IMG/VR virus record: IMGVR_UViG_3300044731_000783
Location: 1 to 63,770 of that record
DNA: 63,770 nt
Origin: a virus
Strand: one strand, 5' to 3'
In this document: positions 22,244 to 62,147 of the stretch, in pieces
How the letters are laid out: the number at the start of each line of letters is the position of its first letter
Position numbering within the stretch: position 1 is the stretch's first letter
Notes under the pieces: generated by a model
The model's input: only the letters and a program-made list of their open reading frames with translations
Database searches by the model: none
Told to the model about the DNA's origin: nothing
Program-made: the position numbers and the translations under genes

Positions 22244-22465
22244 ATGGAAATAGATATTACAATTAATGACGTTACCGGTCAAACACCATATGACGTTTAC
22301 ATATGTGATACCGGTTCAACAACTTGTATATATGTTTCAACAATTAATACCGGTGACTTACCATACACATTTAGTGTTCCACCATTTTTTACAAACTTGG
22401 ACCGGTTTAATTTAAGAATAATAGATGACAATAATTGTCAAATTAATGAAATTTTATTAACATAA
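22244..22465 (+). CDS. Small structural-type protein
   Basis: A 73-residue beta-rich protein, paralogous in pattern to the 34597-34893 product: ITINDVTGQTP ... YDVYICD ... CIYVSTI ... LRIIDDNNCQI. Both end with a strand-turn-Cys segment. It is likely a small fiber- or adhesin-associated subunit. It is followed by the poly-Thr adhesin gene in a TAATG stop-start overlap. TATTTATTT lies three bases upstream of the ATG. Confidence 0.65.
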   Translation: MEIDITINDVTGQTPYDVYICDTGSTTCIYVSTINTGDLPYTFSVPPFFTNLDRFNLRIIDDNNCQINEILLT

Positions 22466-23505
22466 TGGCCTGTATTACATCAACATTTTGCGTATCAACT
22501 AATGTCTACCCCTACGATGGTGAGTATGATGTTGCCGGTACCTATAATTCCGAAGATTATTTTACAGGTGGTTCTTATTTTATATATTTTTCCACAATAG
22601 AAAATAGATGGTGTTTATCGGATTCGTTAGGAGGTACTTGTTATCAGTTTGGTCCAACCGGATTATTTTCAAGTTGTCCGGATTTAGATGAATCTTTTTT
22701 CTCTTCTGGAGCTTGTCCAACAACAACCACAACCACAACCTCACCTTGTGATGTTTTTGATTTTGAGGCGATTTTTGATTGTTTGGTCCCAACAACCACA
22801 ACCACAACTTCAACATCAACAACCACAACAACCACAACAATACCACCTTTTAATCCTTGTTCTGGTGTTTCAGTTAATGTTTCAATAAAAACATACACAA
22901 CAACAACCACAACTATTTTACCAACAACAACAACGACCACAACTATTAATCGTCCTTGTAATTTTGACGGTAATGCGCAATTCAATATATTTGATGAATA
23001 TATGAGATGTGGTAATAGTAAGAAATTCAGAGATTGTTTAACTGGTATTGACTATTACTCATCAGATGTAGTTTTATCACCAGTTGGTGTTTCGCCAACA
23101 CAAGGATATGTTTATAAAGCAGATGTTAATGGTGTTTCAGTTTGTATTACATTTGTTGGGCTTGTTGAAACTACAAGTGGTGTTGATAATATCAATTTAA
23201 TAGAAGAAATTGGTCTGGAAAATGAAGGCGGTTGTCTTGAATGTTTGCCGGATCCACCACCAACAACTACCACAACATCTACCTCAACAACAACCACAAC
23301 AACAATACCACCGTGTATTTTATCCGAATATTTGATAACAAATAATAATTTCTTACCAGCTGAGTTTAGATATACTGATTGTGATGGTAATACAATTAAC
23401 GACTTGTTACCTGGTAATTATGGAAATAAAACGGTTTGTTCACCAACAATTCCAATTGTTTTTGGTAATGCAACAATACAAGATACTGGATTTATTTGTA
23501 ATTAA
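22465..23505 (+). CDS. Poly-threonine linker adhesin/tail-fiber protein
   Basis: A 346-residue beta-rich protein made of small cysteine-containing modules. The modules are joined by four Thr tracts (Thr7; Thr6-Ser-Thr-Ser-Thr7; two Thr6-7 tracts; Thr5-Ser-Thr-Ser-Thr6). Such mucin-like linkers are extended and are good candidates for O-glycosylation. Cysteines occur in each module. With the neighbouring tail genes it suggests a surface-exposed virion adhesin. It is on the opposite strand to the related tail genes and ends at a hairpin shared with ruvC. Confidence 0.75.
   Translation: MACITSTFCVSTNVYPYDGEYDVAGTYNSEDYFTGGSYFIYFSTIENRWCLSDSLGGTCYQFGPTGLFSSCPDLDESFFSSGACPTTTTTTTSPCDVFDFEAIFDCLVPTTTTTTSTSTTTTTTTIPPFNPCSGVSVNVSIKTYTTTTTTILPTTTTTTTINRPCNFDGNAQFNIFDEYMRCGNSKKFRDCLTGIDYYSSDVVLSPVGVSPTQGYVYKADVNGVSVCITFVGLVETTSGVDNINLIEEIGLENEGGCLECLPDPPPTTTTTSTSTTTTTTIPPCILSEYLITNNNFLPAEFRYTDCDGNTINDLLPGNYGNKTVCSPTIPIVFGNATIQDTGFICN
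22720..23304 (+). repeat. ACN-repeat (poly-Thr) tracts in the adhesin gene
   Basis: Thr-coding tracts at 22720-22740, 22792-22839, about 22895-22948, and 23263-23304 are built from ACA/ACC codons. Similar tracts occur in the opposite orientation at about 24760-24835, 26090-26140 and 27775-27815 in minus-strand genes, so they form inverted repeats. Confidence 0.8.
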
Positions 23506-23509
23506 AAAA

Positions 23510-23535
23510 AAATATCGTCTAAAAAGACGATATTT
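23510..23535. terminator. Bidirectional rho-independent terminator between convergent genes
   Basis: An 11-base-pair stem (AAATATCGTCT/AGACGATATTT) with a four-base loop. On the minus strand it is followed by nine T residues, a strong terminator for the RuvC gene; on the plus strand only a short T-run follows, giving weaker termination for the adhesin gene. Confidence 0.85.
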
Positions 23536-23560
23536 CAAATTATCGGTATTTTAAACGATA

Positions 23561-24169
23561 TTATTTCCAAATCTCTTTTGACCTCATATAACCCAGAGCA
23601 CAAGTATAAGCATCAGTCTGGTCAAAATTTTCTTTTTTAAGAGTGTTGTTTTTTGTATAGTGCCAAGTAATTTGGGGTTCTCTTTTTGCAACTTTTTCCC
23701 AAATTAACATTTTCTTATCAATGTCTTTTGGTAAGCCACCAAATAAAACGTACTTACCTTTATCGTTTTCTTGAACAAGGTCTGGCCAAGCATACTTTCT
23801 TGAATTGTATGTTGAGATAAACTCTGGTACTATACCTAAAATATTATAGATTTCTTTAAACACAAAACTATTAAATCTTAATAAAGTTTGTATTGTGTAT
23901 ACATTATTTGAATTTAAAAGTGGTTCTTCGATTATAACTTTAACTATACCGAGATTTAAATATTGTTTTAATTTTTCAGCAAATATTTCAGATTTCAATA
24001 ATAATTCTTTTATTTTATCATCTTCATCTTTACCCATTTTTGGTCTTGGCGAAATGTGCGTAAGTTCTAATAGCTCTTGTGATTGAATGTCAAATAAGGC
24101 CCAACCAATTGTTTTGGTTGAAATGTCTAATCCCAAAACTTTTGGTGAGTTTTTAATTTGTTTTCCCAT
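23561..24169 (-). CDS. RuvC-like Holliday-junction resolvase
   Basis: A 202-residue RNase H-fold nuclease. The first acidic residue is Asp15 in VLGLDISTKTIGWALF, the second is in VIIEEPLL (about residue 80), and the last is in FDQTDAYTCALGYM near the C-terminus. This is the pattern of RuvC and related phage resolvases. It may replace T4 endonuclease VII (gp49) in resolving branched DNA before packaging. It lies between two groups of poly-Thr genes facing each other. Confidence 0.85.
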   Translation of the reverse strand: MGKQIKNSPKVLGLDISTKTIGWALFDIQSQELLELTHISPRPKMGKDEDDKIKELLLKSEIFAEKLKQYLNLGIVKVIIEEPLLNSNNVYTIQTLLRFNSFVFKEIYNILGIVPEFISTYNSRKYAWPDLVQENDKGKYVLFGGLPKDIDKKMLIWEKVAKREPQITWHYTKNNTLKKENFDQTDAYTCALGYMRSKEIWK

Positions 24170-24218
24170 AAAATTTCTTTTATTTAGAAAATAAACAATG
24201 TTAATAAAAATTAAAGTT

Positions 24219-26717
24219 TTAGAAATCTATTTTTACAACATATTGTTGGATTCCTTGTCTTAATGTTGGTGATTGTAGTTTAGACATAACAAGGACATCT
24301 TTATTATCATCAAGTAAAGCAATTTCAGTAATGTATGATTTTGTTCCACCACTCCAAGATGGATTTGTTGACACCTGAAATTCACTAGAACTTAAATTTA
24401 TTTTATATTTCATCTCATAAATTGTTGCTTGTATGTCTGTTTCAAATGCACCATAAAAATAATACTCGTCACCAAAATTAAGTTTTTTTCCAGTTGTGTT
24501 ATTTGGTGTTAATGGTATATAATCATTTAAATTATAGTATGGAGCAATATCATAATTGTCTGGTGATATTATAAATGTAGTTCCAGTTAATGATGACTGT
24601 GTAACATATCCATTATTAAAATTGTTACTAATTTGACTTGTAAAATCAATTAATCTCCATTGAGTTGGGTCTGGTCTTTCACCTGTATTTACTTTTTGTG
24701 CTAATATTTGGAATGTATCGGCGTAATAACCAAATGGTAAATCACAAGTTGGACAATAAATACTTGTTGTAGTTGTTGTTACCGGATAAAAAGTTGTAGT
24801 TGTTGTTGTATAAGGAAATGTTGTTGTGGTTGTTGTTGGCGAACTTCCTGGTTGTACCAAACAATTAAAATCACCCCCAAATCTTACAGCAACATTCTTT
24901 GATACCTCTGGGTTACACTCATTATTATTACCAACAATGTATGGATAATAATTACAATGTAGTGAATTTGTAAATCCAAATTTGTTTGATAAACGATATG
25001 TTATAAACATAGTTTGACTGTTTCCAGTAATAATACCTTGTGATGTTGTTGTTGTATCACAAGTATTTGGTGTGATTAAAGAAAGTTGTGGTGCTGGTAA
25101 TGTCCAGTTTCTATTTGCTTTATATGACATTGCCGCAATAATTTCTTCATCATCAATTATAATCATTTTACTATCCGGAAAAACTTTACCAACTCTACTT
25201 GGTATTCCATCAACATTTGGGTTTGTATCCCATAAATGATAATACCTAATTCCAGGTTGGTTCATATCTTCGTTCTTTTTTGATTTGATAAAATGAACTT
25301 GGAATAATTCTTTATCTTCAAAACCTGGAGGATCGACCCAAAATGTTTGTCCAAAACAACAATCTGGATTTTTATGCCACATTAACCAAGGAATGTGTAA
25401 TTTAAAATTTCGTGCTTGACCGGTCGTATCTGTTGGGTTTGTTGGGTTATAGGGTTGTAATGCAAATTTTTCACCATAAAAGAAATCTATTGTTTGGTTT
25501 GTGTAGTGAATAATTGCAATTGCTTTTTGTTCTTCCGGTTTAACTTGTACTATCTCACCAAAAGAATTGTTATAATAAGTCATACTTGTATCTGTTTGAC
25601 CCTTACTTGAGTTGTAACCAAAATATTCTTTAGTTCCAATGTAATCTACGGATCCAAATTTCGTGTAGTCTTCATATAGGTTTGATATTAATCCGGCAGG
25701 ATTTTCAGTCCAAGGAATATTCATATTCCAAACTTTTACATCAAATTGATCGGTATCACAAATAGATTCAAAATCAATAACTTGTTCACCCCAATGTGGC
25801 ATCGGTGTTACACTATCATATATTTGTTTCATATTTGATGGATAAATAATTACCCTAGAATAACAATTTAACTGAAAATATGTGAAATCTGGTGTTGGTC
25901 TATCTAGTGTTATTGTGTTTAAACAAACATCAACAATTCGATATGTTAAAATTGTATAACAACTATTTGCCGGCATAAAACATTCTGGTTCCGGAGGCAA
26001 TGGACACTGTGGACTAGGTGTTGGTGTAAAACAAGGTGTCTTACTTGGTGTGGGTGTTGGTGTAGGACTAGCACAAGGATCTGTTGGGTTAATAGTTGTT
26101 GTCGATGTTGTAGTTGTAGTACCAGTTGGTGTTGGTGTTGGTAATGGAACATTTACACATTCATAATTATATTTTGCTCTACCATCATAATATATTGTTA
26201 TAATATCACCAATCTGTGGTTTTGATTCATTAACATTACTATTACCTGAATAAATTAACTCAATTTTATTTGACCCATTTAATGTTGACATATCAACAAT
26301 ATAGTTTGGGCTTACAACATATTTGTTACCAACTAATACATCCCAATTTATTGTTGTTGCTGTTGTATTACCGGTAAAAAAACCTCTAAGTGGTGCTCTA
26401 TTAAAAACCGGTTCAATTACAGAATCCATAAATGGAATACCATAAGTGTTTGACTGATTTGAGTCGGCATAGTACGGATATTTAATATATTGTTTGTTTG
26501 ATTCTGGAACGCCACTTGAGTTTTGACTATTAAACTGTGGTTCCAAAACCATACTATTTGACTGATTGTAAGTTGATGATACTTTATCATAAGAAACTTC
26601 ACTATCTCCAACTTGGAAATATGAAATTTTAAAATTACCTTGTGATAATTTTTGTCTTCCTGTATCTGTAACTCTTGTACTTACAAGTCCTGATGTATTT
26701 TTAAGTATATATGCCAT
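24219..26717 (-). CDS. Large virion structural protein with poly-Thr linkers
   Basis: An 832-residue protein. Its N-terminus (TSGLVSTRVTDTGRQKLSQG) resembles that of uncharacterised virion proteins of T4-like phages. The middle is beta-rich with a Pro/Thr segment (TPTPTGTTTTTSTTTI, with PTPSKTP-type repeats) near residues 190-240. Several Thr6 tracts occur near residues 620-650, followed by a cysteine pair (YCPTC). It is predicted to be a surface-exposed tail fiber or baseplate-associated protein. TATTTATTA lies four bases before the start. Confidence 0.75.
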   Translation of the reverse strand: MAYILKNTSGLVSTRVTDTGRQKLSQGNFKISYFQVGDSEVSYDKVSSTYNQSNSMVLEPQFNSQNSSGVPESNKQYIKYPYYADSNQSNTYGIPFMDSVIEPVFNRAPLRGFFTGNTTATTINWDVLVGNKYVVSPNYIVDMSTLNGSNKIELIYSGNSNVNESKPQIGDIITIYYDGRAKYNYECVNVPLPTPTPTGTTTTTSTTTINPTDPCASPTPTPTPSKTPCFTPTPSPQCPLPPEPECFMPANSCYTILTYRIVDVCLNTITLDRPTPDFTYFQLNCYSRVIIYPSNMKQIYDSVTPMPHWGEQVIDFESICDTDQFDVKVWNMNIPWTENPAGLISNLYEDYTKFGSVDYIGTKEYFGYNSSKGQTDTSMTYYNNSFGEIVQVKPEEQKAIAIIHYTNQTIDFFYGEKFALQPYNPTNPTDTTGQARNFKLHIPWLMWHKNPDCCFGQTFWVDPPGFEDKELFQVHFIKSKKNEDMNQPGIRYYHLWDTNPNVDGIPSRVGKVFPDSKMIIIDDEEIIAAMSYKANRNWTLPAPQLSLITPNTCDTTTTSQGIITGNSQTMFITYRLSNKFGFTNSLHCNYYPYIVGNNNECNPEVSKNVAVRFGGDFNCLVQPGSSPTTTTTTFPYTTTTTTFYPVTTTTTSIYCPTCDLPFGYYADTFQILAQKVNTGERPDPTQWRLIDFTSQISNNFNNGYVTQSSLTGTTFIISPDNYDIAPYYNLNDYIPLTPNNTTGKKLNFGDEYYFYGAFETDIQATIYEMKYKINLSSSEFQVSTNPSWSGGTKSYITEIALLDDNKDVLVMSKLQSPTLRQGIQQYVVKIDF

Positions 26718-26736
26718 TATTTAATAAATATATCAT

Positions 26737-28989
26737 TTATATTTTTGATATTGAAATCTCCGTTTTAGGGTTTTGTATTTTAACCGGACAACAATCACAA
26801 TTAATAACTTTAGCGTTTGTTATAAACATTTGATAATTTTTACTAGCAGAACTACAAGGACCTATTGGCTGATTCACTAATAAATTTGTAAACGAACCGG
26901 TTATTGTTTGTCCATAAGTTAATGTAAAAGTGTTTTTATATTCTTTCTGACTGTTACTTTTAATAATTGGTGAATTTGAGCAAGGTAAACTGATTACAGA
27001 AGTTGTATTTGTTGTGTTAATTTGAGTTAATGTTCCAAAACCATTAACTGTTACTAAATTGTTATATTGTGGTTGTGGATTTAGATTTGATGGATAATAA
27101 TTTAAAATACTAATATGGTTAAGATCAAATTCTATTGAGTAACCTGGTTGTAAATTTGAGCCAATAATAAATGTATTATTATTTGTATTTGCTGATAGTG
27201 CAATACCAAATGCTGGGACTTGTTGTACTTGTATAACAACTGTTTGGATTGATATTGTCCCATTTGAATCTTTTACAAAGACAACATAAGTTCCTGCCTG
27301 TAGATTTTGGAATATTGGGTTAGGTGAATATGTTATACCATTATCAATTGAGTATTCATAAACTCCGGAACCACCATAAGCCTGTATTATAATACTACCA
27401 TCATTTTTACATTTAGCCGCATTTGTTGTTACATTAAAACCAACAATATTATTAACACTACAATCACCACTTAACACTGTTAAACTATAAACTTCTGGTG
27501 CTCCAAGTACTTGCCAACCAGTTAGTGGTGGTATTGATGTTGTATTATTTACAATTGTCGCATAACTTGATGGATAACCAGATAAAACCCAATTATTTGT
27601 ATTTCCTGTCGACCAATAAATATTGTATTGTGAATCATTAGATAACCAATTTGGTTTACCATTAAAATAATCGTTATATTCCAATTGGACTTGAGTTGTT
27701 TGGAAAGGTTCTGTACTACTACCACTTCTTAATGTAAAAATTACACATAAATTACCGTATGTTAATATTGGTTTAATTGTTGTTGTAGATGTTGTTGTAG
27801 TAGTTTCACCAGTTAAAACACAAGTTGTGTTTATTATAAAATCACCATAATAATCTGTAACTGTTGCTGTATATTCACCAACATTTAAATTTGTAATTAC
27901 AGGTGCAACACTTCCAATACCCCAAACAATCTCATATGGTGGAGTACCACCAGTTATTGATAATGATGCTTCACCATCATAAGAATAAGGTGTTGATGGG
28001 TGTGTTACAATACAATCAACACCCATTGGGAATATTGTAAGTACATCACATTCATTTCTTGGTTCTATTGTTATTGCTGGTGGTTGTGGACAATCACCAT
28101 TAACACATAAGCCACCTAATTTTATAGCAAATGGTCTTCTTATATTAAAAATTGGTCTTACTAAACTACAAATGCTTGTTGTTTGACCGGTTGGTAAATA
28201 AACCTCTAATAAGTTATAATCACAATCAACATATGTTGTTAAAAAAGGTTCTGAAGGTGTTTTAAAAGTATAACATTCACAATTACAAGTTTCTGCACTA
28301 GAAACAATTGTAAACTCATACTCTGTTGAGCAATCAATAATACCTAAATCTTTAACTAAAAATGGTGTTGTTGGTGTTTCTGGTGATGGTAGATCAATAT
28401 CAATATAAACAAATGTATCAACATAACCTGATAAACTATTATCAGTTGATGTTATCATTTTATAACCACCGTCACAACTTAATAAACCATAACATTGTTT
28501 CAAACAAGGGTGTTTTTGAACACATTGTTCACAACCAAATTCTTCATATTTTTCAAAGCCATTTATTACTGGAACATAATTACTTGTTGGTGGTGGTAAA
28601 ACTTTTGATATTGTTTTATTAAAAACAGTAATACATTGTAAATCAATAATTTCACCAGTTTCACTTTTAATATATTCTAAACCATATATAGCATCGTCTA
28701 TTGATAGTATTTTTTCATTACCATATATTGTATAAACTTCACTACTCTCACAACAAGAACTAAAACTATATGTAGAATTTGGTTTAAAAAAATCACTAAA
28801 CTTTAAATCTTCAATTGTGTTACCACTAAATGGGTAAGTATTACAAAAATTTATAAACGATGTTGTACCGGATTCTATAAATATTGTTATGGTATTACCA
28901 GAACAATCAACAAAAATTAAATCATTTTCTGTTGATCCGGTATTTGTAACAATCGCTACCCTACAATTGGTTAAACAAGTTCCTGCCAT
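26737..28989 (-). CDS. Cys-rich adhesin with SprB-type repeats
   Basis: A 750-residue protein of beta modules rich in cysteine. Two modules match the SprB repeat: GGTPPYEIVWG ... LNVGEYTATVTD (about residues 330-380) and GGSGVYEYSID ... LQAGTYVVFVKD (about 530-580). A Thr5-Ser-Thr3 linker is near residue 395. SprB repeats are known from the flavobacterial gliding adhesin, so this phage tail protein uses host-type adhesion modules. TATTTATTA lies five bases upstream. A 19-base spacer separates its stop from the gene after it. Confidence 0.8.
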   Translation of the reverse strand: MAGTCLTNCRVAIVTNTGSTENDLIFVDCSGNTITIFIESGTTSFINFCNTYPFSGNTIEDLKFSDFFKPNSTYSFSSCCESSEVYTIYGNEKILSIDDAIYGLEYIKSETGEIIDLQCITVFNKTISKVLPPPTSNYVPVINGFEKYEEFGCEQCVQKHPCLKQCYGLLSCDGGYKMITSTDNSLSGYVDTFVYIDIDLPSPETPTTPFLVKDLGIIDCSTEYEFTIVSSAETCNCECYTFKTPSEPFLTTYVDCDYNLLEVYLPTGQTTSICSLVRPIFNIRRPFAIKLGGLCVNGDCPQPPAITIEPRNECDVLTIFPMGVDCIVTHPSTPYSYDGEASLSITGGTPPYEIVWGIGSVAPVITNLNVGEYTATVTDYYGDFIINTTCVLTGETTTTTSTTTIKPILTYGNLCVIFTLRSGSSTEPFQTTQVQLEYNDYFNGKPNWLSNDSQYNIYWSTGNTNNWVLSGYPSSYATIVNNTTSIPPLTGWQVLGAPEVYSLTVLSGDCSVNNIVGFNVTTNAAKCKNDGSIIIQAYGGSGVYEYSIDNGITYSPNPIFQNLQAGTYVVFVKDSNGTISIQTVVIQVQQVPAFGIALSANTNNNTFIIGSNLQPGYSIEFDLNHISILNYYPSNLNPQPQYNNLVTVNGFGTLTQINTTNTTSVISLPCSNSPIIKSNSQKEYKNTFTLTYGQTITGSFTNLLVNQPIGPCSSASKNYQMFITNAKVINCDCCPVKIQNPKTEISISKI

Positions 28990-29004
28990 TTAATTAATAA
29001 ATAA

Positions 29005-29985
29005 TCAAATATTTGTTTTTTTAATGTATGATTTCATAACATCAATATATTTTATTGTTGAGCTGTTTTTATCAACATAATCAAAATGATTTTTATCTTG
29101 TCGTAATTTTTCAATTGGGTCAACACTAATATATTCACCTTTGTAAAATTTTGTTAATTTCAAGTCGTCTGTGACTCCAGCCATATGAAGTATTGGTTTT
29201 TGTTCATAAATTTTAATATCGTCTGTAGCCCAAGAAAATGCCAACTCTTCTGATATTTTTGTTTGTACGTTTTTTTTCCATAAATTCCATAATAATGACC
29301 ACATTTCCGCTGTCCAAAATTGTATTTGGCCTGGATTAATTGGGTATCTTCTTTGGTAGTCCAACATCTGATTATAGAGTGGTGTACAATCTTCATATAT
29401 TTTATTCCAAAGTTTATAATTAGTATTTTTTATAAGATATTGTCCTCCACCTGAATTTTCTTGGTTGTCCTTTATTTTATTTACATCAATACCAACAACG
29501 TCGGCCATTTCTTCAATTAGTTGTCCTTTTCTTGAGTTTGGGTGTCTTTTCTCATATCTATCACAACAATCCATAATATAGTTGTAACCAATGTAACCAA
29601 TTGTGTCGGATAAATATGACACATCATCATTTAATAATTTTTCAAAATCTGGTAATTCCCTAAATATAATATCAGCATCATGTAAAAAAATTACTTTACC
29701 TAATTCTGGTTTTTCTTCTAATAATTTAGAAATTAAATATGGTTTTATACTTGGAATATATGATTTTTTATCTCTATTATCTTCGTAAAAATGAATATTA
29801 ATTCCTAATTTTTTTAATTCTAGTGCACCTTCAGATGGTTCTTTAACGCCGTGAACTAATGCTAAAATTACGTGAATTTGATTTGGGTCAATTCCTTTTT
29901 CTATAAAATTGTGAACATATAGTTTAATTTGCCAATGAAAATACGGAACATCCGGTTGTGCTGTTACAAATACAATATCTTTCAT
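29005..29985 (-). CDS. Glycosyltransferase (GT-A-like)
   Basis: A 326-residue protein with a Rossmann-like start (DIVFVTAQPDVPYFHWQ) and the DxD-type LHDADIIF (Asp103, Asp105), used to bind metal and nucleotide sugar. LSDTIGYIGYN and SGGGQYLIKN follow, as in glycosyltransferases acting on glycans. It lies in the midst of tail-fiber genes, between the SprB/poly-Thr protein and a 406-residue structural protein. It may glycosylate virion Thr-rich linkers or modify a surface glycan. The exact family is not certain. Confidence 0.75.
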   Translation of the reverse strand: MKDIVFVTAQPDVPYFHWQIKLYVHNFIEKGIDPNQIHVILALVHGVKEPSEGALELKKLGINIHFYEDNRDKKSYIPSIKPYLISKLLEEKPELGKVIFLHDADIIFRELPDFEKLLNDDVSYLSDTIGYIGYNYIMDCCDRYEKRHPNSRKGQLIEEMADVVGIDVNKIKDNQENSGGGQYLIKNTNYKLWNKIYEDCTPLYNQMLDYQRRYPINPGQIQFWTAEMWSLLWNLWKKNVQTKISEELAFSWATDDIKIYEQKPILHMAGVTDDLKLTKFYKGEYISVDPIEKLRQDKNHFDYVDKNSSTIKYIDVMKSYIKKTNI

Positions 29986-30030: not shown

Positions 30031-31251
30031 TTATATATAATACAATACCTCCGCAGTACCTAAAAATGTTGCTGTGTTGCTTAGTGGTGTTATACACACC
30101 CACATTTCGTCAAGTGTTCCGTTAACATTAGAACCAACCCTAATTTGATTATCATCCACTTTAACGTCAGTAACAGCCGTTGTTCCAGCTTGACCAATTA
30201 ATGATGTCATAATGTGTCCTGGTGATGTTATTGTTGTTGTGACAGTCCCGTTATATACTGAATACTGAAATGGTGAATTTGGTATGTCAGTCCAACTTGG
30301 GGTTACGGATAATGTAGGGTTAAATTCAATGGTTAGTAAGAAATTATCGTTTGAGGTGTTTAAAATGGATAAACTACTATATTGTGATGTCACTGATTTA
30401 TAACTTTCTTTAAGCCTATAACCAATATACGGATATTTTGTACCTGAAGTTCCTAAATTTGCGGTTGTTGAGTTTTGAACACCAACGGTTGAATAAAGTC
30501 CGTTTAACGCTCCTTCGGTTGATACTTGACTACATAACATATCAAAGTATCCTGAACCAACACCTACTTGTCTTATTTCATACCTAATTGGTTGATTTGG
30601 TGATGACATGTAAACGGTAGGTATATTATTTGCCGCAGTATAGTCTAAAAAATAAAATGTTTGACCCGATAATACCATTCCAAACCTCATCCTACCAACA
30701 CCTAACCATTGATAATCTACTGTCATTAGATTTGTGTTACTCCAATCAAAATTGTTTACGTCAAAGTCTGTATTATTCCAAGTTGTTGTATCGGCACTAT
30801 AAGTGCAAGAACCACTTAAATAAATGTTAAATGTTATAGCACTTGTTACACCATTACTTTCTAAAAAGAACCCGTCAAATACCGAATTGTACGTGGATGC
30901 CGTTGTTGATGTGAAACATCCAATTCGTTTAATTATATTTGTTTCTATTTGGAAGTTTGAAAAACTACCTTCAAATAGTTGACTTTTACCTGGTTGATAA
31001 ATTGGGTGTGTTTTAGTTTGTCTAATAACCAAATCATTATTTGCTGATGTTGACATTCTAACTCTTGCATATTGTTGGTTAAAAACTGATGTTGCAGTAC
31101 CTGCGGTTACTTCATTAACCTGTAAAGGATTTTTATCGTAAACGTGTTTAATGTCTAATAAATTTTGAACCGCTGCGGTTCTTAGTCTACCGAAAGCGTC
31201 CATATTTGGTCCGTCCGCGTACTTTATTGAGTTGTTAAAAATAAATGACAT
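30031..31251 (-). CDS. Virion structural protein (tail fiber/appendage)
   Basis: A 406-residue beta-rich protein with FNNSIKYADGPNMDAFGRL at its N-terminus. The DAFGRLRT motif recurs in phage structural proteins that attach to fibers. The C-terminal part (GSNVNGTLDEMWVCITPLS) also looks like a fiber or receptor-binding domain. It lies five bases from the YadA-like repeat gene upstream, so they are likely co-transcribed and may assemble together. Confidence 0.75.
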   Translation of the reverse strand: MSFIFNNSIKYADGPNMDAFGRLRTAAVQNLLDIKHVYDKNPLQVNEVTAGTATSVFNQQYARVRMSTSANNDLVIRQTKTHPIYQPGKSQLFEGSFSNFQIETNIIKRIGCFTSTTASTYNSVFDGFFLESNGVTSAITFNIYLSGSCTYSADTTTWNNTDFDVNNFDWSNTNLMTVDYQWLGVGRMRFGMVLSGQTFYFLDYTAANNIPTVYMSSPNQPIRYEIRQVGVGSGYFDMLCSQVSTEGALNGLYSTVGVQNSTTANLGTSGTKYPYIGYRLKESYKSVTSQYSSLSILNTSNDNFLLTIEFNPTLSVTPSWTDIPNSPFQYSVYNGTVTTTITSPGHIMTSLIGQAGTTAVTDVKVDDNQIRVGSNVNGTLDEMWVCITPLSNTATFLGTAEVLYYI

Positions 31252-31255
31252 AATA

Positions 31256-34200
31256 TTAAATTAAATACCAATTTCCGTTTCTCACCATAATGGTAAGAGA
31301 CATATAGTTTATATTCATATCAACATATGAATTTCCGTCAATCAAACCCGATGCCGGTGTTAATCTTATTCTAAAAAACCCGGAAGTTCCGGCTTCGTCT
31401 TTTATGACTAAATAATACCCGTCTCTTGACGTTGTTGTTGGTAATGTTAAATCAACATTTGATGATCCACTAACACCCCAATATACTTTATCCCAAGTTA
31501 AGGTTTGTGAGGATGTTATAGCACTTGTTGAGTAGTTTGCTGATTGAGAAATATCTCTTGTTTTTAAAATACCTGTTGATGTGTCTCTAACCAAGAAATT
31601 GTTATTAGTACTATCTGTTTCTGGCGTATTTTGTAATGCCAAATAATTTACGTGGAATGTACAAGCTGATACCGATACAACATCTTTACCATATGTTGCC
31701 GACATTATGTGATTAACCGTATTTCCACTACCACCTAAAATTGTTCCGAAATTAGAAATTGATGTGTTATTTATACCGCCTAATATTGATGAACCATTAC
31801 CAAATGCCGAATTACATCTACCACCGCCAATAAAATTACAAAGACCTATGGCTCTATTTGAAACTCCCCCAACTACGCTTGAGTGTGCTCCACATGTTGT
31901 ATTGCATTGCCCACCACCAATAAATGTGTAGTCACATCTTGTTGTATTATTTTGACCGTTACCTATAATTGAATAACAACCGGAAGTTGTATTTAATTTC
32001 CCATTGTTTACAGTACTAAAACAATCAACAGCAGTATTCCTATCACCATTATTAATAAATGAATACACACCAGATGTGGTATTACAATTACCATTATTAA
32101 TTGATGATTTAAAACCTAATACTGTATTATAAGTGCCGTTATTTACAGTTGTAAAATTTGTACACAATGCTTTATTAAATGCCCCATTATTAATAGTCGT
32201 CCAAGTAAGGTTTGCTGTATTACAAGTACCGTTATTTACAGTTGAGTAACCACCAGATGCGGTATTATTAAAACCATTACCAATAAACGAATATTGCCCA
32301 GTTGTTGTATTACCACAACCATCTCCAATTATCGAATAACAAGCATTTACCGTATTTCCAGAACCACCAATTATCATTGAGTAATTACAATTTGATTTAT
32401 TTATAGTTCCACTACCAATAAATGAATAATTACCATTTGACGTATTTTGACAACCACCAACAATTACAGAATATGTTTGTTGTGTTTTATTTTGGGTACC
32501 ACCACCAATAGTTGAGCCAAAACCATTTGTTGTGTTTTGATTTCCACCATTAATTGATGAGTAAAAATCTAAAGCGGTATTTGAATCACCTCCAGTAACA
32601 ACTGAAGATGAGTTTGCACTAACGTTAAGTCTACCTCCACCAACAAATGAACCATAGGCTGAACTAGTATTACGTTGCCCCCCACTAATTGTTGAGCTAT
32701 AACCACTTGATGTGTTACATACTCCACCACTTACAGTTACTGAATTATTATTTGTTGTGTTACAAGAACCACCACCAATAACAGAACTATCACCTAACGA
32801 CGTGTTAAGTATACCACCACTAATAACTGAAACATAACCACTTGATTTGTTACAAAGACCTCCACCAATTGTTGCATAATTGGCAGAGGCTGTATTACTA
32901 CCACCACCAGCAACTGTAGATCCACTACCAAAAGACCAATTATTAGTGCCACCACCAATTGTTCCATAAATAAAATTTGTCGTGTTACAATAACCACCAC
33001 TTATTGTTCCATAATCAGAACTATATAAAACACTATTATAATACCCACCCCCAATTACAGCACCACCACAACAATATAAACTATTTGTTAATAATATTTT
33101 ATTTTGAAGTCCTCCATTAATTGTTGAGTAACTTCCAGATGATGTTGTATTAACAATTAATTCAACACCATCATTAAGATTTAAAGAGCCAAAACAAGTA
33201 TTATCAAAAAATAATTTATCGCCATTTTGATAATTAAGACCTTTATTATTTATATATACATTACTTAATGTCCCTATTGGATTAAAATAAAAACTAAATG
33301 TACCATTTGTTCCATAAAGTGAGTCTGTTGATGTTGGCCCAAATGGACCATAATACCCACTAATAGTTGAACCAGTCCAATTGCAACTTGAAAATCCACC
33401 TATAAGTCCAGGTACACCAATTGTGTTTGCCTGACCGGCACCAATTATTGAACCAAACCCAAATGTTCTATTTATACTACCACCACCAATAAACGAATAA
33501 CAACCACAACTGGTATTATCAAGACCACCGGTTACAACAGAATACTTACATTGGACGTGATTAGCACCTCCACCACCGATAAACGATCTACCAGCTACTG
33601 TAGCATTACTATTTCCTTTACCACCAACAATTATAGTGTACGGACTACTTACAAAATTATTTTCTCCACCACCGATGAATGAATATAATCCGCTTGCAGT
33701 ATTGTTATGACCACCACTTACGGTTGATATGTAACCACTTGACGTGTTGCAAAGTCCGCCACCAATTGTTGAAAAATTACCATTTGATGTGTTACGTCGT
33801 CCACCACTTACGGTTGAATCTTGACCACTTGATGTGTTACAAAAACCACCACTTACGGTTGAATAATCACAGCTTGATGTGTTATTTAAACCACCACCTA
33901 TTGTTGAACCTTGACCACTTGTTGTATTACAATATCCACCACTTAATGTTGAGTAGTTTCCACTTGATGTGTTTTGACGACCGCCACCAATAAATGAATA
34001 ACCTTTAGTTGATGTGTTACAAAAACCACCGCTTATTGTTGAATAATCATTGGATACTGTATTATAACTTCCACCACCGATAAAATTACCATAACCTTGT
34101 TCTACAGTATTTGAAAGTCCGCCAACAATTGCAGATCTAGTTGTTGTTAAATCTTTAATAATATTACATTCTCCACCACCAATAAAAGAACCGCTTTGTT

Positions 34201-34564
34201 CTGAAATATTAAAATTCCCACCACCAATAAACGACCCAGGTCCAGAAGTTGTGTTAAAATACCCTCCACCAACAAATGAATAAAATCCACTTGCCGTATT
34301 TCCAGTACCTCCACCAACAAGTGAATAAATACCACTTGCGTCAGCATTAACACCAACTCTTTGTGTTGAGTAATTTCCGGATCCAGTTTCATACAATTGT
34401 GTTGCACCTGTAAAACCAGAAAAAATTGCATCAGATACTTGTTGTATTGTTGCTTTATATGATGATCCTGCCGGATTTTGAGAAGTATCACCAGTTATCA
34501 CAATATGAATTAAATCTTGTAATGTTACTCCGGTTGCTAATGTTCTATCGGTAAGAAATCCCAT
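31256..34564 (-). CDS. YadA-like repeat tail fiber (trimeric autotransporter-type beta roll)
   Basis: An 1102-residue protein in which roughly fifty copies of a 15-residue unit (NTxSGxYSxIGGGxx) fill about residues 75-960. An insertion of about 80 residues lies near 395-475. The pattern resembles head repeats of YadA-type trimeric adhesins, which form left-handed beta rolls. The N-terminus (GFLTDRTLATGVTLQDL) would be the virion attachment part; the C-terminal 130 residues, with no repeats, may bind the receptor. TATTTATAAATA is 11 bases upstream. Confidence 0.85.
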   Translation of the reverse strand: MGFLTDRTLATGVTLQDLIHIVITGDTSQNPAGSSYKATIQQVSDAIFSGFTGATQLYETGSGNYSTQRVGVNADASGIYSLVGGGTGNTASGFYSFVGGGYFNTTSGPGSFIGGGNFNISEQSGSFIGGGECNIIKDLTTTRSAIVGGLSNTVEQGYGNFIGGGSYNTVSNDYSTISGGFCNTSTKGYSFIGGGRQNTSSGNYSTLSGGYCNTTSGQGSTIGGGLNNTSSCDYSTVSGGFCNTSSGQDSTVSGGRRNTSNGNFSTIGGGLCNTSSGYISTVSGGHNNTASGLYSFIGGGENNFVSSPYTIIVGGKGNSNATVAGRSFIGGGGANHVQCKYSVVTGGLDNTSCGCYSFIGGGSINRTFGFGSIIGAGQANTIGVPGLIGGFSSCNWTGSTISGYYGPFGPTSTDSLYGTNGTFSFYFNPIGTLSNVYINNKGLNYQNGDKLFFDNTCFGSLNLNDGVELIVNTTSSGSYSTINGGLQNKILLTNSLYCCGGAVIGGGYYNSVLYSSDYGTISGGYCNTTNFIYGTIGGGTNNWSFGSGSTVAGGGSNTASANYATIGGGLCNKSSGYVSVISGGILNTSLGDSSVIGGGSCNTTNNNSVTVSGGVCNTSSGYSSTISGGQRNTSSAYGSFVGGGRLNVSANSSSVVTGGDSNTALDFYSSINGGNQNTTNGFGSTIGGGTQNKTQQTYSVIVGGCQNTSNGNYSFIGSGTINKSNCNYSMIIGGSGNTVNACYSIIGDGCGNTTTGQYSFIGNGFNNTASGGYSTVNNGTCNTANLTWTTINNGAFNKALCTNFTTVNNGTYNTVLGFKSSINNGNCNTTSGVYSFINNGDRNTAVDCFSTVNNGKLNTTSGCYSIIGNGQNNTTRCDYTFIGGGQCNTTCGAHSSVVGGVSNRAIGLCNFIGGGRCNSAFGNGSSILGGINNTSISNFGTILGGSGNTVNHIMSATYGKDVVSVSACTFHVNYLALQNTPETDSTNNNFLVRDTSTGILKTRDISQSANYSTSAITSSQTLTWDKVYWGVSGSSNVDLTLPTTTSRDGYYLVIKDEAGTSGFFRIRLTPASGLIDGNSYVDMNINYMSLTIMVRNGNWYLI
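31700..34340 (-). repeat. About fifty 45-base in-frame repeats
   Basis: The repeat units of the fiber gene are near-periodic 45-base segments with GGTGGTGG-type cores and AATACC/AACACA units. They are degenerate at the DNA level but keep length, so recombination between units would change fiber length without breaking the frame. Confidence 0.85.
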
Positions 34565-34896: not shown

Positions 34897-37110
34897 TTAA
34901 TCACATTCAACACAAGAAATATTATATTGTATTACCATATTAACAATAAATCTTGTATCATTTAAAAGATTGTAGGTTTCTTTTCTACAATTTTTATTTA
35001 TTTCATCACAGTCATTTGTTATTTTAACTGTGTTATTTTCGTAATCAATTATAACATCTCCAACACCAACAAAACCTTCTAAAATTGTTTGTAGTGTTTC
35101 ACCCCATAATAAATCGGAAGGGTAATCTTCTAAACTGTTAGAATAATAAAAATTACTTTCACTTAATTCATCACCAACTTTTACACTTAATATAAAATTT
35201 GCTTCATTTAAAACACAATTTGTATCACCAGATGTTAAATCACCAAAACCTTCATTAAACATTTGTTTAATACCTCGTTTACCCATAATTGTTGTGTTTT
35301 CAAATGTTTTTTGACAAATTGTTGTATATGAATAATCACCAAATAATTGAGTACCCAATAGTTTTATTACCCTATCAAAAGAACAACCATTATTATCTAT
35401 TACTTGTAATGAATAAAGACCATTTGTTAATCCGGTAACAAATAATCCAGTTTGACCACTTACATTTGGTGACCAATTATATGTAAATGGTGGTTCACCA
35501 CTAGTTATAACAACACTAATTTGACCATCGTTACCAAATACCGGATTAAAACCAATTAGATCAAAATACATTTGATTTGATGGTGTAATATAAACCGCAA
35601 CAAATTGTTGACATCCAGTTGCATCTGTTGTTGTTAATGTGTAATTACCTGGTTGTAAATTTTGAAAATTACCACTAAATTGTGTTATATTTTGTGGTGA
35701 GGTTGTTGGTCCAAATAAATTATAAGATATTGGTAATGTTGCACCAGTTGTTACTGTAGTAGTTATTGATCCATTATTCAAACCACAAGAAGTCCCAATG
35801 TTTATTGTGTTAATAGTGTATTTATCTTCATTAATTACTGATGTTGTTCCGGTATATATACAACCAGTACCATTATCAATTGTTATAATATAATCACCAG
35901 ATGAAACATTTGTGAAATTTTGAACTTGTCCATTAGGTACTGAAATTGCTGTTTGACCTGTGTTTCCAGAAAGTGTATATGTGTACGTACCAAGACCAAT
36001 ACCGTTATTAATTGTTATTAAAATACTTCCGTTATTTGAATTACAATTTGAATTTGTTGTTGATAACACAACGGTACCGAATGAACCAGGTGTCACTAGT
36101 GTTGTTTGTGTTGTAAAATTACATAAACCAGCATCAGTAACTGTAATATTATATGAACCACTTGTTAAACCAGTAAATGTATGTGTTGTGTCAAAAGAAA
36201 CAACTGAATCACCATTAGAACAATAATAGTAAAAAGGTGCAGTACCTCCGGTTGTAATTACCGTTATCTCACCATCATTTTGAAAACAAGATGGTTGTGT
36301 TAGTATTAATGAGCCGAGTCCAATTGTTTCTACAGTATCTATTTGAATTGAGTCTGTTTGTATACAACCATTTTGATTTGTTATTTCAACTGTGTATAAA
36401 CCTTGTGTTAAACCAGTAATGGTTGTTCCAGTTTGTCCGTTTACATTTGATAACCAATTTATTGTATAGGCACTTGTTGGTGTTGTTAGACCGGTTATAT
36501 ATATTTTTCCACTACCTTGCCCTTGGACACAACTAGCATCGTCTACTTTGTAATAACCAAAATTAAATGATGTGCTTGGTTTAATTATTACTGATTCACT
36601 AATTCCTTGACATCCACCACCATCATCACCAATTATAAAATAACTATCTGCTTGTAAATTGTTAAAGATAAAATAATCTTCACCAAATGATGTTTGACCA
36701 CTTGTTATAAATGTTGATGTTAAATCATACAATTCAAATGTTGATTGACCATAATTAAATTCAGTATAGGCGGTAATTGAACCACTTGGTAAATTACAGG
36801 TTGTATCATCACTTACCGCAAAAATTGTTGTTCCTGTTGAAATAACAAAGGATCTGATTATTGTTTGTGGTGGTGTTGGTGGTACAGTGGTCTCAACTAC
36901 TTGGAATGAATAATTCCCAAACGGTAGTCCACCAACATAGTATGAGTTTGATCCTGGTGATAAAATAGTTGTTGGTAATAATCCACTGCCTGAAATTTCA
37001 CTTACAACCCAATTTGGTGAGTTACCAGAAATTTCAAAATATAATTCACCAGAAGATGTGTTACCACAGTCACCGGTTATAGAAAAATCATATATATTAA
37101 GCCAACTCAT
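34897..37110 (-). CDS. SprB-repeat virion adhesin
   Basis: A 737-residue protein with about five clear and two weaker SprB-type repeats. Examples are TSAYTINWLSN ... GLTQGLYTVEIT, GGTAPFYYY ... GLTSGSYNITVTD, NLQPGNYTLTTTD and GEPPFTYNWSPN ... GLTNGLYSLQVID. Each ends in a Gly-Cys pair. The last about 150 residues form a separate domain with Cys residues (NCVLNEANF ... CDEINKNCRK). A virion surface position is inferred from its neighbours. SprB repeats in hosts act in adhesion and gliding. Confidence 0.85.
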   Translation of the reverse strand: MSWLNIYDFSITGDCGNTSSGELYFEISGNSPNWVVSEISGSGLLPTTILSPGSNSYYVGGLPFGNYSFQVVETTVPPTPPQTIIRSFVISTGTTIFAVSDDTTCNLPSGSITAYTEFNYGQSTFELYDLTSTFITSGQTSFGEDYFIFNNLQADSYFIIGDDGGGCQGISESVIIKPSTSFNFGYYKVDDASCVQGQGSGKIYITGLTTPTSAYTINWLSNVNGQTGTTITGLTQGLYTVEITNQNGCIQTDSIQIDTVETIGLGSLILTQPSCFQNDGEITVITTGGTAPFYYYCSNGDSVVSFDTTHTFTGLTSGSYNITVTDAGLCNFTTQTTLVTPGSFGTVVLSTTNSNCNSNNGSILITINNGIGLGTYTYTLSGNTGQTAISVPNGQVQNFTNVSSGDYIITIDNGTGCIYTGTTSVINEDKYTINTINIGTSCGLNNGSITTTVTTGATLPISYNLFGPTTSPQNITQFSGNFQNLQPGNYTLTTTDATGCQQFVAVYITPSNQMYFDLIGFNPVFGNDGQISVVITSGEPPFTYNWSPNVSGQTGLFVTGLTNGLYSLQVIDNNGCSFDRVIKLLGTQLFGDYSYTTICQKTFENTTIMGKRGIKQMFNEGFGDLTSGDTNCVLNEANFILSVKVGDELSESNFYYSNSLEDYPSDLLWGETLQTILEGFVGVGDVIIDYENNTVKITNDCDEINKNCRKETYNLLNDTRFIVNMVIQYNISCVECD

Positions 37111-61466: not shown

Positions 61467-62147
61467 CTAAATATAGTTAATCATTTTATAATAATCATCA
61501 TTAAAGTTTGGATTTAATTCAAAATTACCGAGATTATTTTTAGTCATTTCGTCAATTTTTTTATAAATAATTTCTTTTGGTGTATCACCAAATCCAGAAA
61601 CGTGATATGTATTCATTCCCCATCTATAAATCATAGTTGGTTTACCATTATCTTCATAAATTTTTGCATTATTTTTAAACGTAATATCAAAATCTTCACC
61701 AAAATTTTTGTCCGGAAATTGGATTCTATTTATATAACTTTTAGTATAAACATTTCCATTATTTACGTTTCCACCGATTTTATCAAACTTATTATGTATA
61801 AAAAAATAATGGGTCTTTGGTCTGTATATTTCATACCCAGGATTTGCATTAATAAAACCTTCGGTTATGTTTAAAGCATCCGGACCTAAAAGATCGTCAT
61901 CATCTAATCGATAAATGTAATTATAAGAACATTTACTAAAACCCCACTCAAGTTTTTTGGAAATACTTGTAAACCTCTCTTTTAAGTTAAAAATTTTTAC
62001 TTGTGGGTGATTAAATGTATAAACATTATTAGGGCTATCATTTATTACAACCATCTCACTATTTGAATTATTTTGTAATAAAAAAGACTGTATTGCCTCT
62101 TCAAGTAAGTGGTGTCTTTGGTATGTTAAAGTTAAAACTGAAATCAT
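61467..62147 (-). CDS. Family 2 glycosyltransferase
   Basis: A 226-residue GT2 enzyme. The start (VLTLTYQRHHLLEEAIQSFL) is the typical nucleotide-binding strand-helix, and RLDDDDLLGPDAL (Asp82-85) is the metal/sugar-nucleotide site. It probably glycosylates phage DNA, virion protein or a host glycan; which cannot be told from sequence. It sits between uvsX and ssb, an unexpected place for such an enzyme, after a terminator that would limit readthrough from ssb. Confidence 0.85.
   Translation of the reverse strand: MISVLTLTYQRHHLLEEAIQSFLLQNNSNSEMVVINDSPNNVYTFNHPQVKIFNLKERFTSISKKLEWGFSKCSYNYIYRLDDDDLLGPDALNITEGFINANPGYEIYRPKTHYFFIHNKFDKIGGNVNNGNVYTKSYINRIQFPDKNFGEDFDITFKNNAKIYEDNGKPTMIYRWGMNTYHVSGFGDTPKEIIYKKIDEMTKNNLGNFELNPNFNDDYYKMINYI

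What the first reader, a model, noticed from the sequence alone, without database searches (positions are those of the whole stretch)
22465..29985. Poly-threonine virion linkers next to a glycosyltransferase: possible O-glycosylated phage adhesins
Three large tail-type genes carry runs of 5-7 threonines with occasional serine, and a DxD glycosyltransferase (29005-29985) sits among them, with a GT2 at 61.5 kb. Bacteroidota have general O-glycosylation of Ser/Thr in exported proteins. The linkers could be mucin-like stalks modified by phage or host enzymes to evade binding or to shape host range.
Basis: inference. Interest (0 to 1): 0.75.

Follow-up and report, generated by a model that had tools for sequence, protein, structure and literature searches.

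The report
Phage sugar-transferase with poly-threonine virion tags
This phage carries a sugar-attaching enzyme whose gene appears, across unrelated phages of three bacterial phyla, together with strings of threonine on the proteins of the virus particle and is missing when they are missing, which suggests that the phage sugar-coats its own particle at these tags.

Summary
In detail: 11 Thr/Ser tracts lie in three genes (22465-23505 +, 24219-26717 -, 26737-28989 -) beside a predicted GT-A glycosyltransferase (29005-29985, PHROG 4417, 'unknown function'). The interpretation could be tested by asking whether transferase and tracts come and go together. They do. In this phage's own group, 92 of 94 distinct 24219-type proteins from transferase-positive loci come with poly-Thr linkers in that protein or its neighbour, against 0 of 29 without; the linkers are deleted or TPTPTP instead. 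Firmicutes phages and prophages with the same transferase family put poly-Thr tags at the C-termini of unrelated capsid, connector and tail-tube proteins (35 of 35 prophages). When searches started from the virion protein without its tag, tags occurred in 7/7 versus 0/13 (capsid) and 7/7 versus 0/14 (tail tube). All independent tree contrasts that differed went the same way. Best reading: a phage-encoded O-glycosylation system whose acceptor is poly-Thr in virion proteins. The sugar, chemistry and benefit are not shown. The host's general O-glycosylation and the GT2 at 61.5 kb are not supported as parts. Virion glycosylation is known in mycobacteriophages, but with other transferases. A new variant of a known kind, testable by mass spectrometry.

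The parts
29005..29985 (-). predicted GT-A glycosyltransferase, PHROG 4417, 326 aa; DxD (D103-A-D105) at about 29671-29679, invariant H267 and G270
   Evidence: PHROG match E 2.1e-69; AlphaFold pLDDT 92.7, pTM 0.91; Foldseek to UGGT, XXYLT1, glycogenin and LgtC at E about 1e-6 to 1e-5; conserved columns
24219..26717 (-). 832-aa protein, probable virion component, with the most consistent poly-Thr region
   Evidence: tracts; 94 GT-positive against 29 GT-negative homologues
24762..24836 (-). C-terminal linker array TTTTTT-FPY-TTTTTT-FYPV-TTTTTS (residues 628-652): most likely acceptor in this phage
   Evidence: present in 83 of 94 GT-positive and 0 of 29 GT-negative homologues
26094..26120 (-). 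N-side linker tract TTTTTSTTT of the same protein; TPTPTP in many relatives
26737..28989 (-). 750-aa protein encoded directly after the transferase; one tract TTTTTSTTT at 27778-27804
   Evidence: directly after the transferase in 78 of 81 loci
22465..23505 (+). 346-aa Cys-rich modular protein with five tracts (22720-22743, 22792-22839, 22897-22914, 22924-22944, 23263-23304), opposite strand
   Evidence: the same linkers are TPTPTP in several relatives
22244..22465 (+). 73-aa small protein, partner of 22465, no tract; context only
30031..31251 (-). virion structural protein, PHROG 1645; marks the block as virion genes
   Evidence: E 1.6e-48; relatives in cyanophages

Best explanation
The gene at 29005-29985 encodes a phage O-glycosyltransferase (PHROG 4417) that acts in the host cytoplasm, before or during virion assembly. 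It attaches sugar from a nucleotide-sugar donor to Thr (and Ser) in poly-Thr tracts of virion proteins. In this phage the main acceptor is probably the C-terminal linker array of the 24219-26717 protein, with the linkers of 26737-28989 and 22465-23505 as further sites. In related systems the acceptors are C-terminal tags on capsid, connector and tail-tube proteins. Shown by sequence: transferase family and fold, tracts, and their linked gain and loss. Inferred: that the tracts are the substrate, and that a dense glycan stiffens the linkers and shields exposed surfaces from proteases or unwanted binding.
For: (1) Own group: poly-Thr in 24219 linkers or a run of six or more in 26737 for 92/94 GT+ against 0/29 GT- (Fisher 3.7e-26, not corrected for kinship). 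On the tree GT changes at least 6 times; of 5 well-supported independent pairs, on average 4.7 go the same way and none the other way. The GT is absent from the whole contig in 23 GT- records searched. (2) 7/7 isolate phages with this GT (Enterococcus, Staphylococcus, Lactobacillus, Arcanobacterium, Chryseobacterium) carry poly-Thr in unrelated proteins next to or near the GT; 10/10 GT- phages with homologous capsid and tail-tube proteins have none. (3) 35/35 Firmicutes prophages with the GT carry C-terminal tags on one to three virion-region proteins. (4) Searches started from the untagged virion protein: capsid 7/7 against 0/13, including pairs 82-90% identical, with GT as scattered on the tree as in shuffles and 6 changes; tail tube 7/7 against 0/14 (Fisher 8.6e-6); IMG/VR tail tube 5/5 against 0/3. 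(5) Tag codons are mixed, so selection acts on the amino acid. (6) In 21 of 27 prophages the two large tagged proteins end in the same two residues.
Against: No chemical evidence. Two GT+ exceptions (L156, L293, both with a divergent GT) have no poly-Thr in these proteins. Structural similarity to known GTs is moderate (TM 0.38-0.47 normalised by the query). Within one phage group the coupled traits are inherited together, so the raw Fisher values overstate the evidence; no single tree test reaches p 0.05 on its well-supported branches. The 24219 model is poor (pLDDT 43), so exposure of the tracts is not shown.
Confidence: 0.84

Rival explanations
1. The poly-Thr tracts are only flexible spacers, and the transferase has another target such as phage DNA or a host envelope glycan.
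For: Tracts sit between domains in the window proteins, and other relatives fill the same positions with TPTPTP linkers. Phage glycosyltransferases also glucosylate DNA or modify host serotype (PMC12619734).
Against: Spacers would not come and go with one transferase in three unrelated virion protein families, with 0/56 tags in GT-free relatives (29+13+14). C-terminal tags on capsid and tail-tube proteins link nothing.
Confidence: 0.07
2. The tracts are O-glycosylated by the host's general system, with the phage transferase adding at most an outer sugar.
Against: Motif D[ST][AILMTV] coincides with 1 of 11 tracts. The host system acts on exported proteins, while virion proteins are made and assembled in the cytoplasm (recalled). 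The same pairing occurs in Firmicutes phages.
Confidence: 0.04
3. Transferase and tags are a linked cassette that recombines as a block without a functional link, or the tag is a binding handle for the enzyme and not its substrate.
For: The transferase lies within a few kb of tagged genes in most systems seen.
Against: Tagged capsid and tail-tube genes are separated by several untagged genes; capsid proteins 90% identical differ in tag and GT (L365 and L366); tags occur in different proteins in different groups.
Confidence: 0.05

Closest known systems
Virion O-glycosylation of mycobacteriophages (Freeman et al. 2023, read only through PMC12619734, PMC11652166 and PMC12363180)
   Same: Phage-encoded transferases; glycans reported at the C-termini of capsid and tail-tube subunits, the same kinds of protein and position as the Firmicutes tags here.
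   Different: Che8 has no match to the PHROG 4417 profile and no poly-Thr run in its capsid/tail region. The window system uses internal linkers of large accessory-type virion proteins.
GT8 / GT24 glycosyltransferases (glycogenin, LgtC, XXYLT1, UGGT)
   Same: Predicted GT-A fold, DxD, invariant C-terminal His and Gly; several of these enzymes glycosylate proteins.
   Different: No Pfam match above cut-off and no real PDB sequence match; about 10% identity in the structural alignments.
PHROG 4417 ('unknown function')
   Same: The window gene is a full-length member (E 2.1e-69).
   Different: No function or link to poly-Thr is recorded in the library.
General O-glycosylation of Bacteroidota
   Same: Ser/Thr O-glycosylation idea.
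   Different: Motif not met at 10 of 11 tracts; host-encoded; acts on exported proteins (recalled).

Membership tests
PHROG 4417 | profile match over the full length | tested here: met
   E 2.1e-69, residues 6-319 against 3-290 of 293
GT-A glycosyltransferase, GT8/GT24-like | GT-A fold with DxD | tested here: met
   pLDDT 92.7; 164 PDB matches at E<=0.001, top ones GT24/GT8; D103/D105 invariant
GT-A glycosyltransferase, GT8/GT24-like | membership of GT8 or GT24 by sequence | tested here: not met
   no Pfam glycosyltransferase match and no relevant PDB sequence match
Phage virion glycosylation system | phage-encoded transferase genetically tied to virion proteins with a common acceptor sequence | tested here: met
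Phage virion glycosylation system | glycan on purified virion proteins | not testable with these tools
   needs mass spectrometry
Mycobacteriophage Che8 type | transferases homologous to those of Che8 | tested here: not met
   no match of profile A5 in Che8; Che8 gp108-110 read
Bacteroidota general O-glycosylation | D[ST][AILMTV] acceptor motif at the tracts | tested here: not met
   1 of 11 tracts
Bacteroidota general O-glycosylation | acceptor proteins exported to the periplasm | not tested
   no signal-peptide tool used; phage assembly is cytoplasmic (recalled)

The most novel reading that the evidence does not exclude
PHROG 4417 enzymes define a widespread, undescribed virion glycosylation system with a portable poly-Thr acceptor tag that evolution has placed on unrelated phage proteins (capsid, connector, protease, tail tube, large linker proteins) in Bacteroidota, Firmicutes and Actinomycetota phages, and that is lost when the enzyme is lost. 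The tag would be a simple cytoplasmic O-glycosylation signal.
Probability: 0.75. Interest if true: 0.85.

Novelty: new variant of a known kind. Interest (0 to 1): 0.8.

Why it matters
It gives a specific, testable function to a PHROG of unknown function and to a common but unexplained low-complexity sequence. It predicts from sequence alone which phage virions are glycosylated and where. It extends virion glycosylation, reported in the papers read here for mycobacteriophages, to Bacteroidota and Firmicutes phages and to prophages of Lactobacillaceae, Bacillaceae-type families, Enterococcus, Listeria and Clostridium. A short poly-Thr tag with one small cytoplasmic enzyme could also be a useful protein-glycosylation tool.

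Tried and rejected
GT2 at 61467-62147 as a partner: no match in 16 relatives (no positive control in that search). Host O-glycosylation motif: 1 of 11 tracts. DNA microsatellite as the cause of the tracts: codons are mixed. Structure of the 24219 protein: low-confidence model, so no fold search was made. Sequence relatives of the GT in the PDB: one weak irrelevant hit. Homology to the Che8 glycosylation genes: none found. Papers on poly-Thr in phages: nothing relevant in the held library; PMC6821194 treats prokaryotic and phage low-complexity regions but does not make this link in the passages read. Freeman et al. 2023 is not held. The unqualified [TS]>=5 count was too loose: GT-free relatives have in-domain runs such as SLYITTTTTKIRN, so linker positions and runs of six or more were used.

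Full report
WHAT IS THERE. The window is a 63.8-kb IMG/VR virus record. Matches to RNR, DnaB-like helicase, UvsX-like recombinase, exonuclease and baseplate-wedge families point to a T4-like phage. The block reads, mostly on the minus strand: 31256-34564, virion structural protein 30031-31251 (PHROG 1645), glycosyltransferase 29005-29985, 26737-28989, 24219-26717, 23561-24169; then, on the plus strand, the pair 22244-22465 and 22465-23505. Eleven Thr/Ser tracts lie in three of these genes. Shuffles do not give such runs in 22465 and 24219; the single run of 26737 is reached by 69 of 5000. The codons are mixed, so the property kept is the amino acid.

THE ENZYME. 29005-29985 has no Pfam family above cut-off (the only listed match is a sub-threshold SwrA hit) but is a full-length member of PHROG 4417, function unknown. 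The AlphaFold model is good and Foldseek places it with GT-A enzymes of the GT8/GT24 type: UGGT, XXYLT1, glycogenin, LgtC. TM-scores are moderate, so the fold class is clear and the CAZy family is not. The DxD, a C-terminal HxAG and a K-G are kept from the window to Lactobacillus and Staphylococcus phages.

FIRST COMPARISON, BY ENZYME. Eighty related viral loci have a stable order: the 26737 homologue follows the enzyme in 78 of 81 loci. Aligned homologues show that the same linker can be TTTTTT in one phage and TPTPTP in another, so a plain spacer need not be poly-Thr.

SECOND COMPARISON, BY 24219 PROTEIN. Sampling by the 24219 protein gave phages without the enzyme. Among 123 distinct proteins (window included), 88 of 94 GT+ have poly-Thr in the 24219 linkers; four more (L032, L209, L217, L234) have a long run in 26737 instead; L156 and L293 have neither. 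Of 29 GT- none has any. In GT- phages the C-terminal linker is mostly deleted (for example CLSQPGFTAGTEC...) and the rest is TPTPTP. The enzyme is also absent from the whole contig in the 23 GT- records searched. On a tree of the protein core without linkers the enzyme changes at least six times; five well-supported independent pairs go the same way or do not differ, never the other way. This sample alone gives at best p 0.06.

THIRD COMPARISON, OUTSIDE THE GROUP. The same enzyme family occurs in 74 phage isolate records, mostly of Firmicutes hosts. All seven fetched carry poly-Thr in proteins unrelated to the window's: major head protein and tail protein of phiFL2B, capsid and tail tube of R3.3, tail tube and head protease of SA2 and TPWB06, and two linker proteins just upstream of the enzyme in MA9V-3. 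Ten phages with homologous capsid or tail-tube proteins but no enzyme end without a tag, for example ATCC8014 ...DDNKAAIFSATPKA against R3.3 ...DDNRQAIFTAGTSATTTTTTKAPTTTTTSSHA. In GTDB genomes, 35 of 35 Firmicutes prophages with the enzyme have tags, almost always in the last residues of one to three proteins. In 21 of 27 the two large tagged proteins share their final two residues, as if one tag had been copied between genes or selected alike. Two distant Bacteroidota homologues (29-31% identity, L363, L364) lack tags.

UNBIASED TESTS. To avoid choosing loci by enzyme or tag, untagged capsid and tail-tube sequences were used as queries. Capsid family, 161 genomes: enzyme adjacent in 7, all tagged; not adjacent in 13, none tagged (chance about 1.3e-5 by simple combinatorics). 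On the capsid tree the enzyme is as scattered as in shuffles and changes at least six times. Tail tube, 401 Lactobacillaceae genomes: 7/7 against 0/14 (Fisher 8.6e-6; in one of the seven the enzyme is on another contig). IMG/VR tail tube: 5/5 against 0/3, one further locus too short to judge.

READING. Three unrelated protein families, two architectures (internal linker, C-terminal tag) and hosts in three phyla show the same coupling with no GT- counterexample in the families sampled. The simplest account is that poly-Thr is the enzyme's acceptor. What is shown is coupling, enzyme class and amino-acid-level selection; the modification itself, the sugar and the benefit are inferred. A glycan brush that stiffens linkers and shields exposed ends is the most likely use.

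KNOWN OR NEW. Papers read here say mycobacteriophages glycosylate capsid and tail-tube C-termini with their own transferases (PMC12619734, PMC12363180, PMC11652166). The function is therefore of a known kind. Che8, one of those phages, has no match to this enzyme profile and no poly-Thr run in its capsid/tail region, so enzyme and acceptor are different. No paper linking PHROG 4417 or poly-Thr tags to virion glycosylation was found in the held library, which lacks most subscription journals.

Noticed in passing
L057:9959-11002 (IMGVR_UViG_3300043775_002552): A transferase 71% identical to the window's sits in a different gene context beside genes that look like sulfotransferases and a GT25 (read by eye), near a 1472-aa leucine-rich-repeat-like protein with TTTTTTEAPTTTTTTTVAP linkers.
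   Followed up: partly
22244-23505: This gene pair is on the plus strand inside a minus-strand block, and in relatives it is found on either side of the block and in either orientation.
   Followed up: no
window tract positions and homologues: Homologous linkers alternate between TTTTTT and TPTPTP (ACA against CCA codons), sometimes in several genes of one phage at once.
   Followed up: partly
31256-34564: 1102-aa protein built of about 15-residue repeats (GG..NTSSGxYSxxx), seen as a 45-base tandem repeat at 33709-34046; it looks like a repetitive trimeric fibre.
   Followed up: no
L328-L362: Within one prophage the tags on capsid and tail-tube proteins end in the same residues (SA, GV, GA, SHA, QA) in 21 of 27 cases, suggesting tag copying or selection on the extreme C-terminus.
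   Followed up: partly
L156, L293: Two transferase-positive phages without poly-Thr in the neighbouring proteins, both with a divergent transferase; they may have another acceptor.
   Followed up: no
PV831789.1 (Aeromonas phage AS1): A record labelled Aeromonas phage has a tail protein 75% identical to that of Lactobacillus phages; host label or sample may be wrong.
   Followed up: no
34897-37110: Three SprB-repeat matches above cut-off; SprB repeats are known from Flavobacteriia adhesins (recalled), in line with a Bacteroidota host.
   Followed up: no
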